Of a stretch of 64,000 bases of DNA, positions 735 to 43,133 are shown piece by piece. A model generated the notes under the pieces. That model had not been told where the DNA came from. It saw only the letters and a list, made by a program, of their open reading frames with translations, and ran no database searches. The DNA is from Flavobacterium sp. AED (GTDB taxonomy: Bacteria; Bacteroidota; Bacteroidia; Flavobacteriales; Flavobacteriaceae): assembly GCF_000812945.1 (NCBI RefSeq), contig NZ_JSYM01000003.1, positions 372,001 to 436,000 of the forward strand, given 5' to 3'. A program made the translations under genes and the position numbers. The first letter of the stretch is position 1; each line of letters opens with the position of its first letter.

Positions 735-827
735 GTTCTTTTAAATTAAACTCAAAAACTTATCCAAAAGCAATTTAGTGCTATTTTGTCATAGTATAAC
801 TAAAAGGGCATTTTAAATACAATCCCC

Positions 828-908
828 TAGCCCAGATGGAAACGGCATCCTTTTTATCTCGTTTTTTAACGAGATAAAAAGATATAGTGGACAGCTGGAA
901 ATAGCTCC
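828..908 (+). repeat. dispersed intergenic repeat, copy 1 (short form)
   Basis: The left end reads TAGCCCAGATGG and the right end CAGCTGGAAATAGCTCC. Both ends match the copies at 11709-11850 and 27259-27398. The core is a perfect 13-bp stem with a TTTT loop (851-880) that the other copies lack. It lies between the divergent rhomboid and rarA genes and has no coding potential. Confidence 0.75.
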
Positions 909-993: not shown

Positions 994-2271
994 ATGGAAG
1001 CACCACTTGCAGAACGCATTCGACCACAAAAACTAGAAGACTATATCAGTCAATCCCATTTGGTAGGACCAAGCGGCTCATTGACTCAACAAATTACAAA
1101 AGGAATAATTCCTTCGCTTATTTTCTGGGGACCACCTGGAACTGGAAAAACAACTTTGGCACAAATTATTGCACAAGAATCTAAACGACCTTTTTACATT
1201 TTGAGCGCTATCAATTCAGGTGTGAAGGATATTCGAGATGTTATTGAAAAAGCAAAACAAAGTGGCGGATTATTTACTGCAAAAAATCCTATCCTATTTA
1301 TTGATGAGATTCATCGTTTTAGCAAATCTCAGCAAGACTCTTTACTGGCTGCTGTGGAAAAAGGCTGGATAACACTGATAGGTGCAACCACAGAAAATCC
1401 AAGTTTTGAAGTTATTCCGGCGTTACTTTCGCGTTGCCAAGTTTATGTTTTAAATGCTTTTACAAAAGCCGATTTAGAAGCCTTATTGGAACGCGCCATG
1501 AAAACGGATAATTATTTAGCAAACAAAAAAATTGTTTTAAAAGAAACAGAAGCTCTATTAAGACTTTCCGGAGGTGATGGACGCAAGCTATTAAATATTT
1601 TTGAACTTGTCGTAAACGCTTCTAATGAAGCCGAAATTATAATCACTAACGATCGAGTCTTTGAATTGGTGCAACAAAATACCGTTTTGTATGACAAAAG
1701 TGGCGAACAGCATTATGATATTGTTTCGGCTTTTATAAAATCAATTCGAGGAAGTGATCCAAACGGAGCCGTTTATTGGCTTGCAAGAATGATTGAAGGT
1801 GGTGAAGATGTAAAATTCATAGCCAGACGTATGCTTATTCTAAGTAGTGAAGATATAGGAAATGCAAACCCTACTGCTTTCATCATGGCAAATAATGCAT
1901 TCCAGGCAGTTTCAACTATCGGCTATCCTGAAAGCAGAATTATATTAAGCCAATGCGCTATTTACTTAGCAACTTCCCCTAAAAGCAATGCTTCGTATCT
2001 TGCTATAGGAACTGCACAACAACTGGTGAAACAAACAGGCGACTTACCGGTCCCCATTCATTTGCGTAATGCACCCACAAAATTAATGAAAGAATTAGGC
2101 TATGGGGAAGAGTATAAATATTCTCATGATTTTGCCAACAATTTTGCTGAACAAGAATTTCTTCCTAATGATTTAAGTAATACCCCTATTTATAATCCGG
2201 GAAACAACTCGCGAGAAAATACCATTCGGGAATTCCTAAAAAATCGTTGGAAAAATAAATACGGGTATTAA
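994..2271 (+). CDS. rarA: replication-associated recombination protein A, AAA+ ATPase
   Basis: The 425-residue protein matches the RarA/MgsA/WRNIP1 family in length and motif order. It has Walker A GPPGTGKT at about 46-53, Walker B LFIDEIHRF at about 101-109, and a sensor-1 stretch GATTENPSF at about 130-138. The C-terminal region carries the family's helical tetramerisation domain, with the typical SSEDIGNANP stretch. RarA acts at stalled replication forks and interacts with SSB and the clamp-loader machinery. The gene stands alone on the plus strand. Its leader contains a TTTCAGATTT stretch like the heptamer repeat in front of obgE. Confidence 0.95.
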   Translation: MEAPLAERIRPQKLEDYISQSHLVGPSGSLTQQITKGIIPSLIFWGPPGTGKTTLAQIIAQESKRPFYILSAINSGVKDIRDVIEKAKQSGGLFTAKNPILFIDEIHRFSKSQQDSLLAAVEKGWITLIGATTENPSFEVIPALLSRCQVYVLNAFTKADLEALLERAMKTDNYLANKKIVLKETEALLRLSGGDGRKLLNIFELVVNASNEAEIIITNDRVFELVQQNTVLYDKSGEQHYDIVSAFIKSIRGSDPNGAVYWLARMIEGGEDVKFIARRMLILSSEDIGNANPTAFIMANNAFQAVSTIGYPESRIILSQCAIYLATSPKSNASYLAIGTAQQLVKQTGDLPVPIHLRNAPTKLMKELGYGEEYKYSHDFANNFAEQEFLPNDLSNTPIYNPGNNSRENTIREFLKNRWKNKYGY

Positions 2272-11632: not shown

Positions 11633-11708
11633 TTTTTTAGTTGATTCGTTTTTTATTTAAATTCTGATTCCTGAGTTTTTACTTTCTGAAATCTGCGATC
11701 CAGATTTT

Positions 11709-11850
11709 TAGCCCTGATGGTAATGAAAAGCCCGGAGTTAAAAAAGCTAATTTTTCTTGTCAAAAAAGAGCGACCAAAGGAAGCTCCTTTTATTACTTAG
11801 AAAAATAGTTTTTTTAACGAGGACTTGTAATGTACAGCTGGAATTGCTGC
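11709..11850 (+). repeat. dispersed intergenic repeat, copy 2 (long form)
   Basis: The left end is TAGCCCTGATGGTAATGAAA and the right end TGTACAGCTGGAATTGCTGC. The core holds a GAGC/GCTC stem around an 11-base loop GACCAAAGGAA. Nearly the same loop is present in copy 3 on the other strand. The right end reaches the first base of the adk stop codon. Confidence 0.8.
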
Positions 11851-27258: not shown

Positions 27259-27398
27259 GGAGCTAATCCGGCTGTACATTACAATTCCTCACTACAAAAC
27301 TTGTTTTTCTAAGGTGCAAGAAAGCTTCTTTTAGTCGCTTTTTGCACCTTGAAAAACTACATTTTGAAGCTCCGGGATTTTCATTCCCATCCGGGCTA
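27259..27398 (-). repeat. dispersed intergenic repeat, copy 3 (long form, inverted)
   Basis: Read on the minus strand, it begins TAGCCCGGATGGGAATGAAA and ends TGTACAGCCGGATTAGCTCC. The core at 27311-27350 is a strong hairpin: 9 bp (AAGGTGCAA with TTGCACCTT), a one-base bulge, then AAAGC with GCTTT around the loop GACTAAAAGAA (minus strand). It matches copy 2 over nearly its whole length. Confidence 0.8.
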
Positions 27399-27428
27399 AA
27401 AAACAATGCCCAAAAACACATTTATTAC

Positions 27429-42112: not shown

Positions 42113-43012
42113 ATGAGTTCCACCATTTCATCAGACCAAAAGAAATCTTTAGCAATATCAATTCTTTTGTATGCGACAATGTTGTTAATTTTATTTTTCA
42201 TACGCTTTTGGCCACCAGCAAACTTGGCTGAACTTGCCGGAGGTGGTGGAGGTGGCGGCGTTACCGTTAATTTTGGAGATAGCGATTTAGGATCTGGAGC
42301 GAATTATAAAAGCGAAGTGCTGCAAGTAAAAAATCAAACCAAACAAACACCAACAAAAACAATACCTCAAGAAGCTATCTTATCCCAGGAAAACAGTACC
42401 GAAGAAAGTGTTGTCATTCCTCAAAAAGAAAAACCTAAAAAACCAATAACTGTTGTAAAGGAAGAACCTAAACCGGTGGTTGTAAAACCTAAAGTTTCCA
42501 ATAATACTAACGATGCGTTATCCAGTATTCTAAAAGGTTCCAATAAAGGTGGTGATGGCGATGACAAAGCTGCCGGAAATAAAGGAAAATCAAACGGAAG
42601 TTTAAGTTCTAATGGTTATTACGGAACTGGAGGTTCCGGTGGAGGAACAGGTGGCGGAAATGGCACTGGAAACGGAATAGGGACTGGTAGTGGATATGGC
42701 TCTGGAAGTGGAGGAGGAAACGGAAGTGGTTCCGGAGGCGGTAGCGGTTACTCCTTAGGAAACAGAAAAGCAGTTTCTAAACCAGCACCTAAATACACCT
42801 GTAACGAAGAAGGAAAAGTTGTTGTAGAAGTTTCTGTAGATAGAAATGGACGAACTATAAATGCAATTGCCGGTATAAAAGGAACCACTAATACAGCGCG
42901 ATGTTTGCTAGATCAAGCAAGAATCGCAGCGATGAATACTAAATGGGATGCCAGCAGTGATGCCCCGGAAAAACAAGTGGGCAAGATTGTTTACAATTTC
43001 AATTTAAATTAA
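42113..43012 (+). CDS. TonB-like energy transducer with glycine-rich linker
   Basis: The protein has about 299 residues from the ATG at 42113; a TTG-started frame from 42050 adds an unlikely extension. It has one N-terminal membrane anchor (SLAISILLYATMLLILFFI), a long low-complexity periplasmic spacer with Lys/Pro and Gly/Ser repeats (GGTGGGNGTGNG and similar), and a C-terminal TonB-like domain with GKVVVEVSVDRNGRTINA. It would couple proton-motive force from ExbB/ExbD to outer-membrane receptors such as SusC. exbD and exbB lie downstream in convergent orientation. Confidence 0.85.
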   Translation: MSSTISSDQKKSLAISILLYATMLLILFFIRFWPPANLAELAGGGGGGGVTVNFGDSDLGSGANYKSEVLQVKNQTKQTPTKTIPQEAILSQENSTEESVVIPQKEKPKKPITVVKEEPKPVVVKPKVSNNTNDALSSILKGSNKGGDGDDKAAGNKGKSNGSLSSNGYYGTGGSGGGTGGGNGTGNGIGTGSGYGSGSGGGNGSGSGGGSGYSLGNRKAVSKPAPKYTCNEEGKVVVEVSVDRNGRTINAIAGIKGTTNTARCLLDQARIAAMNTKWDASSDAPEKQVGKIVYNFNLN

Positions 43013-43033
43013 ATACCAATAATTTAAACATAA

Positions 43034-43065
43034 AAAAAATGCCTCGACTTATCGAGGCATTTTTT
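43034..43065. terminator. bidirectional terminator between the TonB-like gene and exbD
   Basis: The stem AAAAAATGCCTCGA pairs with TCGAGGCATTTTT over a CTTA loop; A and T tracts flank it on both sides. Confidence 0.88.
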
Positions 43066-43133
43066 ATATAATTTACAATCATCCGAAGAAAAATCTCAAC
43101 TATGCAATTGCTTATTAAAAACTCGCAATGACG

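What the first reader, a model, noticed from the sequence alone, without database searches (positions are those of the whole stretch)
828..908. Dispersed intergenic repeat with conserved ends and a variable hairpin core (copy 1 of 3)
The ends (TAGCCCnGATGG at the left; GnACAGCTGGAAnT... at the right) are shared with 11709-11850 and 27259-27398, but the core here is a different, perfect 13-bp hairpin. Constant ends with an exchangeable core suggest a mobile, REP/MITE-like element rather than a simple terminator. No transposase or RAYT-like gene is in the window. I have a vague memory of similar sequences in other flavobacterial intergenic regions, so this family may be noted in genomes without a described function.
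Basis: seen in the sequence. Interest (0 to 1): 0.6.

Follow-up and report, generated by a model that had tools for sequence, protein, structure and literature searches.

The report
Old fixed hairpin repeats, called Flavo-1
This is one of about a hundred copies of a known but unexplained hairpin repeat (Flavo-1) in a Flavobacterium genome; many copies stay at the same place and in the same direction in related species while the hairpin itself is often swapped or rewritten, so it looks less like a recently jumping element than like an old, selected structure of unknown job.

Summary
Window 825-905 (+) is a full match to Rfam RF01705, "Flavo-1 RNA" (77 bits); copies 2 (11706-11848 +) and 3 (27401-27261 -) are a long-core variant just below Rfam's cut-off. 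The genome lists about 100 matches. One imperfect stem is shared; its apex is exchangeable. The "recent mobile element" reading fails its own test: the three window copies have orthologues at the same sites and orientation in congener G007, and 53 of 72 fetched G007 copies match an own-genome Flavo-1 locus by flanking genes (42 on both sides), none in opposite orientation. No target-site duplications were found. Flavo-1-rich congeners exist without a match to the genome's RAYT, to any Y1 transposase, or to a reverse transcriptase. Structure is selected: in 26 rows at one site, 98% of pair cells are paired, with two-sided changes at 10 of 15 pairs. The "exchangeable core" is nevertheless real: at 25 of these 53 pairs at least ten other own copies match as well as or better than the orthologue. 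Best reading: an old, mainly vertically inherited, REPIN-like family of single-stranded hairpins without a known partner. DNA versus RNA action is unresolved.

The parts
825..905 (+). Flavo-1 element, copy 1 (Rfam RF01705, short-core type A, subtype GGCATCC/GATATA)
   Evidence: 77 bits, E 3e-15; model 1-76/76; RNA fold -26.1 kcal/mol, z -4.6
828..849 (+). left arm of the conserved imperfect stem
850..881 (+). variable apical hairpin, 14 bp, loop of four
882..899 (+). right arm of the conserved stem
900..908 (+). conserved 3' tail AATAGCTCC, unpaired in the family model
11706..11848 (+). Flavo-1 copy 2, long-core variant (type D) with conserved apical domain GAGCGACCAAAGGAAGCTC
   Evidence: 35.6 bits, below the 42-bit cut-off; orthologue at the same site in G007
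27261..27401 (-). Flavo-1 copy 3, long-core variant (type D)
   Evidence: 40.8 bits, below the cut-off; orthologue at the same site in G007
994..2271 (+). neighbouring gene, RarA/MgsA-type AAA ATPase (name from recall, no family search run), used to fetch 80 loci

Best explanation
Copy 1 is a member of Flavo-1, an old dispersed family of imperfect hairpins. Shown: about 100 mostly intergenic copies in this genome; in the congeners tested many copies at orthologous sites in the same orientation; a stem with conserved mismatches kept paired by two-sided changes; variable apices; elements at a large share of orthologous sites that resemble other copies better than their orthologue. Inferred: the folded + strand is what is recognised, as single-stranded DNA more likely than as RNA, by an unidentified host factor. 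The family would thus be a domesticated, REPIN-like population of hairpins that is inherited mainly vertically, lost piecemeal, and now and then overwritten by another copy between its constant ends.
For: Identity and copy number. Sites: 32 of 80 RarA loci carry an element starting 107-203 bp upstream of the gene, all +, with 0 hits in the reversed control of 1.53 Mb, on deep branches of the rarA tree too; 53 of 72 G007 copies match 52 of 94 own loci (the own loci cover roughly 7% of the genome); the window's three copies and no others in the syntenic G007 stretch. Structure: 26 rows, 98.2% of cells paired against 36-49% when slid, two-sided changes at 10 of 15 pairs. Conserved non-standard pair: A.G in 183 of 187 elements, G.A in 3. 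+ strand: G.T wobbles outnumber A.C 59 to 26 over 187 elements. Not a leader RNA: neighbour strands 36/25/20/9; TAnnTTTG motifs mostly read away from the element (41 and 33 against 11.9 and 10.6 in shuffles). Swapping: at 25 of 53 pairs at least ten own paralogues match as well as or better than the orthologue, element and flank identity uncorrelated (rho 0.07); at C4:73330 against L253 the flanks match up to both ends with a different element between.
Against: No partner factor was found, and no exchange event was seen directly. The wobble excess is modest and its rows are not independent: own genome alone 21:13 (p 0.23), G007 alone 20:7 (p 0.02); a strand-specific RNA would explain it too. 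Folding does not favour DNA: the DNA fold of copy 1 is -15.2 kcal/mol on both strands and its centroid keeps only the apical hairpin, while the RNA centroid shows the family stem. No leading/lagging bias in G010 (30:25) or G066, so no support for a replication-fork step. Some low-identity pairs are mainly core changes (L317). 18 of 72 G007 copies have no counterpart among the own loci tested. Distribution in the phylum is patchy, which suggests gains or many losses.
Confidence: 0.5

Rival explanations
1. Flavo-1 acts as an RNA: a structured non-coding RNA or a protein-binding element in transcripts, as the 2010 discovery paper and Rfam file it.
For: Covariation with retained internal loops and A.G pairs; + strand wobble excess 59:26; RNA fold z -4.6 with the family stem in the centroid, which the DNA fold lacks; 2010 table: RNA 'probably', cis-regulatory 'probably not' (PMC2864571, passages); several 5' transcribed regions coincide with hits in F. 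psychrophilum (PMC9723704, passages).
Against: No strand preference relative to genes; elements mostly upstream of promoter motifs; the F. psychrophilum authors found hits indistinctly sense or antisense and many outside transcribed regions.
Confidence: 0.27
2. An active REP/REPIN or MITE mobilised by the genome's RAYT or another Y1 transposase.
For: About 100 extragenic palindromic copies; a RAYT gene exists in the genome (NF047646, 95.3 bits, cut-off 80); patchy distribution in the phylum (44 of 296 genomes, 22 of 139 genera).
Against: The RAYT gene is flanked by another repeat; RAYT-like matches in 81 of 150 genomes of the genus against Flavo-1 in 140 of 150; G004 and G011 (88 and 44 matches) have no Y1 match; no TSD; orthologous sites.
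Confidence: 0.08
3. Relics: a once mobile family now decaying, with arm complementarity kept by hairpin-templated correction rather than by function.
For: Element-free rarA sites that look ragged or keep a right-end remnant (read by eye); two own copies are perfect palindromes (C4:8434, C2:430944); 10 of 150 genomes of the genus show no match (capped and strict filters).
Against: Arm correction would erase the conserved mismatches, yet A.G persists in 183 of 187; some elements are better conserved than their flanks (L251: 0.97 against 0.56 and 0.67).
Confidence: 0.1
4. A transcription terminator or mRNA-end stabiliser between transcription units.
For: Median distance to a facing gene end is 20-71 bases.
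Against: The scan found no terminator-like site at copy 1; the only one nearby is at 1010-990. Other copies were not scanned.
Confidence: 0.05

Closest known systems
Rfam RF01705 Flavo-1 RNA (PMC2864571)
   Same: Same family: copy 1 scores 77 bits over the whole model.
   Different: Filed as an sRNA gene; here it behaves as a dispersed intergenic repeat at conserved sites. Long-core copies 2 and 3 fall below the cut-off, and types B and C have other outer parts.
REP/REPIN populations with RAYT transposases (PMC8049555, passages; PMC3116915 and PMC3733652, listing and abstract start only)
   Same: Many short extragenic imperfect palindromes; mainly vertical inheritance and long persistence.
   Different: No RAYT dependence seen, ends TAGCCC/TAGCTCC instead of a GTAG or CGTC tag, and an exchangeable apex.
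ERIC and BOX repeats (from recall, no call)
   Same: Modular intergenic palindromes without a known transposase.
   Different: No sequence comparison was made here.

Membership tests
Rfam RF01705 Flavo-1 | score at or above the 42-bit gathering cut-off over the model | tested here: met
   copy 1: 77 bits
Rfam RF01705 Flavo-1 | the same cut-off for window copies 2 and 3 | tested here: not met
   35.6 and 40.8 bits, though ends and site behaviour are shared
Rfam RF01705 Flavo-1 | is an expressed RNA | not testable with these tools
   only passages of the F. psychrophilum transcriptome paper bear on it
REP/REPIN | high-copy extragenic imperfect palindrome | tested here: met
   2 of 92 lie inside an ORF call
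REP/REPIN | partner RAYT gene flanked by or co-occurring with the repeat | tested here: not met
   RAYT flanks carry another repeat; G004, G006, G010, G011 and G021 (88, 40, 57, 44, 66 matches) have no match to this RAYT
REP/REPIN | GTAG or CGTC tag at the hairpin foot | tested here: not met
   foot is mostly YYYTAGCCC in 69 type-A copies; tags taken from the PMC3733652 title and abstract start
MITE | target-site duplication | tested here: not met
   69 copies: mean longest flanking direct repeat 0.88 nt against 0.76 shuffled, 41 of 200 shuffles as high
MITE | clean empty sites or recent insertions | tested here: inconclusive
   element-free rarA sites look ragged or carry remnants, by eye; 18 of 72 G007 copies unmatched, their own-genome sites not read
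cis-regulatory leader RNA | fixed strand relative to the downstream gene, inside the 5' UTR | tested here: not met
intrinsic terminator | stem followed by a T run | tested here: not met
   copy 1 region only

The most novel reading that the evidence does not exclude
Flavo-1 is a site-locked exchange system: about 100 chromosomal 'slots' per genome, conserved in place and direction across congeners, whose hairpins are overwritten as whole units by copies from other slots between the constant ends TAGCCC and GGAAATAGCTCC, by a copy-and-replace process that needs neither RAYT/Y1 transposase nor reverse transcriptase and that acts on the folded + strand.
Probability: 0.25. Interest if true: 0.8.

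Novelty: already known. Interest (0 to 1): 0.5.

Why it matters
Flavo-1 was described in 2010 and submitted to Rfam, and has been listed among the most abundant bacterial sRNA families (PMC9029176, one section read) with no function. The data here argue against a conventional leader RNA and make the puzzle testable: which factor binds the folded strand, and how do whole hairpins come to differ at conserved sites? If the exchange is enzymatic, it would be an unusual kind of copying within a genome.

Tried and rejected
RAYT link: tested by protein, family and flanks; not supported. Reverse transcriptase (retro-copying): RT matches in 70 of 150 genomes of the genus; G001 (73 matches), G003 (59), G008 (37) and G013 (79) have none. 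These enzyme searches can miss divergent proteins, and drafts may lack genes. Replication-strand orientation: no bias in G010 (right arm 15+/14-, left arm 16+/10-) or G066 (7+/7-, 10+/5-), with the terminus assumed opposite dnaA. Spread on phages or plasmids: copy 1 gave no match at E 0.01 (no positive control run); exact patterns gave one viral contig for the short subtype and none for the long. Target-site duplications: none. Terminator: not supported at copy 1. The first ortholog count, 30 of 40 loci from five congeners, was made by hand from top-scoring hits and is superseded.

Mended on checking: the nine elements 8.6-10.7 kb downstream of rarA were first all taken for window copy 2's site; one search confirms this by both flanking genes for seven (six long-core, L188 short-core), not for L220 and L234. 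Two G007 copies (L304, L320) map to one own locus by one flank each. The mapping script picks the own locus with the highest same-side score, which favours same orientation; no reported match had any opposite-side score and unmatched copies had no hit at all above 45% identity.

Rows dropped: of 100 matches, 92 were read with flanks; four above the cut-off were not fetched, two were opposite-strand duplicates, two lay below the cut-off. Of 86 G007 matches, 72 were fetched; one above the cut-off and 13 below it were not. L348 was set aside as spurious (45% identity). Alignment A1 holds the window and 25 of 32 rarA-site elements; L177, L203, L216, L217, L223, L224 and L227 were left out. Pair counts use 41 of 53 pairs, those my matrix scored in both genomes. 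Copy numbers from searches of many genomes are lower bounds: only 15, 29 or 89 candidates were scored per genome.

Full report
What it is. Window 825-905 (+) is a full-length match to Rfam RF01705, Flavo-1 RNA (77 bits, E 3e-15). The window lies in a 3.93-Mb draft genome of 15 contigs; its RarA-like protein is up to 95% identical to those of named Flavobacterium species. That genome lists 100 matches at E up to 0.001, 95 over the cut-off, two of the 100 being the opposite strand of listed copies (150 of 1253 candidates scored). TAGCCCNGATNG occurs 61 times against 2 for the reversed pattern.

Anatomy. Ninety-two copies were read with flanks. They share an imperfect stem: in type A, left TAGCCCnGATnGnAGYGGnATCC and right GATAnAGCGnAnAGCn'GGA, with two internal loops, an A.G mismatch and an extra C. 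Three outer arrangements occur: type A (69), B (14) and C (6), with 3 unassigned. Two linked subtypes exist: AAATCC with GATT, and ATCC with GATA; in 67 of 69 matrix-scored copies both arms agree. The apex is a variable hairpin with a T-rich loop on the + strand (TCTTT in 52 of 174). Window copies 2 and 3 belong to a long variant (type D) with its own conserved apical domain. In some copies the apex holds another palindrome: CCTGAACTTGTTTCAGGAT was hit 7 times in the DNA held, all inside Flavo-1 elements, overlapping loci counted more than once.

Structure is selected. At the one site upstream of rarA, 26 rows (window plus 25 of 32 elements) give 98.2% of pair cells paired against 36-49% for slid controls, two-sided changes at 10 of 15 pairs, and no shuffle of 500 as high on four of five measures (2 of 500 on the fifth); the rows are related species, so the shuffle counts are not probabilities. 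Over 187 distinct elements the A.G mismatch is kept in 183 and is G.A in 3. G.T exceeds A.C 59 to 26 when the + strand is folded; own genome alone gives 21:13 (p 0.23), G007 alone 20:7 (p 0.02), pooled p 0.0004 without correction for relatedness. Folding energies alone do not separate strands: RNA -26.1 and -24.2, DNA -15.2 and -15.2 kcal/mol; the DNA centroid keeps only the apical hairpin.

The sites are old. RarA was used to fetch 80 loci. A two-block matrix scan found 48 elements in them and none in the reversed control. Thirty-two start 107-203 bp upstream of rarA, all in the orientation of copy 1. Seven are at the site of window copy 2, by both flanking genes, all +: six long-core, one (L188) short-core. 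Five lie about 1 kb upstream of rarA on the other strand (not checked to be one site), and four elsewhere. On the rarA tree the upstream site is occupied on deep branches too, with many absences; several empty sites look ragged or keep a right-end remnant, by eye. In congener G007, 53 of 72 fetched copies have flanking genes matching an own-genome Flavo-1 locus (52 of 94 loci tested), 42 of them on both sides and none with opposite-side matches. In 58 kb of G007 DNA that aligns with window 45-45567, the scan found exactly three elements, at the sites of the window's three, same type and orientation.

The element at a site is often another one. For the 53 pairs, element identity is unrelated to 40-nt flank identity (rho 0.07, p 0.63). 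At 17 the orthologue is the best match among 94 own elements, up to full identity; at 25 at least ten own paralogues match as well or better; 11 lie between. At C4:73330 against L253 the flanks match up to both ends while subtype, paired positions and apex all differ; G013 at the same site has the subtype of G007, so the own lineage seems to have changed, and its closest own copy is C2:213569 at 95%. Of 41 pairs scored in both genomes, 13 differ in subtype (one more could not be typed), and two-sided pair changes per site are 0 in 17, 1 in 8, 2 in 8, 3 in 5 and 4 in 3. Not all are swaps: in L317 mainly the apex changed, and single compensated changes occur.

Who could move it. The genome has one RAYT gene (NF047646, 95.3 bits against 80), flanked by a different repeat, and one IS200-type gene. 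Among 150 genomes of the genus (own included) Flavo-1 is found in 140, a match to this RAYT in 81, any Y1 domain in 108 and a reverse transcriptase in 70. G004 and G011 (88 and 44 matches) have no Y1 match; G001, G003, G008 and G013 have no RT match. No target-site duplications; no phage or plasmid match to copy 1, one exact-pattern match in viral contigs. In the phylum it is found in 44 of 296 genomes and 22 of 139 genera, patchily outside Flavobacterium; patchiness leaves room for gains as well as losses.

RNA or DNA. Neighbouring genes show no clear strand preference (36 both -, 25 both +, 20 divergent, 9 convergent, 2 unresolved, simple ORF calls). TAnnTTTG motifs are enriched reading away from the element on both sides (41 and 33 against 11.9 and 10.6 in mononucleotide shuffles), weakly so reading in from the left (28 against 16.5) and not from the right (16 against 14.1). 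At rarA the likely promoter, read by eye, lies between element and gene. The F. psychrophilum transcriptome paper (passages) reports Flavo-1 hits indistinctly sense or antisense to transcripts, many outside them, and several coinciding with 5' transcribed regions. I lean to a DNA-level hairpin read from its + strand, but no replication-strand bias was found and RNA action remains possible.

Literature. Flavo-1 was defined in PMC2864571 (table passages) and is listed without function in PMC9029176 (section 6 and a table passage). Searches for the name, the accession and for flavobacterial REP-like repeats listed no paper on exchange of Flavo-1 at fixed sites; I judged by listings and passages, and the library holds open-licence papers only.

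Noticed in passing
G000:C2:232046-232642 (L100:1189-1788 -), outside the window: A single RAYT gene with its own flanking repeat (GTCTCTGACTTTGCGCA and its complement), apparently a flavobacterial REP family of its own.
   Followed up: partly
G000:C4:8434-8512 and G000:C2:430944-431026: Two Flavo-1 copies are perfect palindromes over the arms printed: the right arm is the complement of the left, mismatches erased, as arm-templated correction would produce.
   Followed up: no
L001, L002, L036, L052, L317: Flavo-1 apices carry long palindromes, in several cases CTAGTCCTGAACTTGTTTCAGGATC and its complement, as if another repeat were nested in the loop.
   Followed up: partly
type B copies, e.g. 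G000:C1:203686-203766, C1:1991143-1991234: The same stem is closed by a different outer part, GCGTGAGGG...CCCGACCC hairpin GGGTCACGCCC, suggesting a three-way junction.
   Followed up: no
window 42982-43067 (+): A sub-threshold Rfam match to the phenylalanine leader (34.4 bits, cut-off 55).
   Followed up: no
downstream of several type A copies, e.g. G000:C2:213569 and C3:75851: A second small hairpin (TCCTGAAATTCATCAGGA or similar) follows the element's right end.
   Followed up: no
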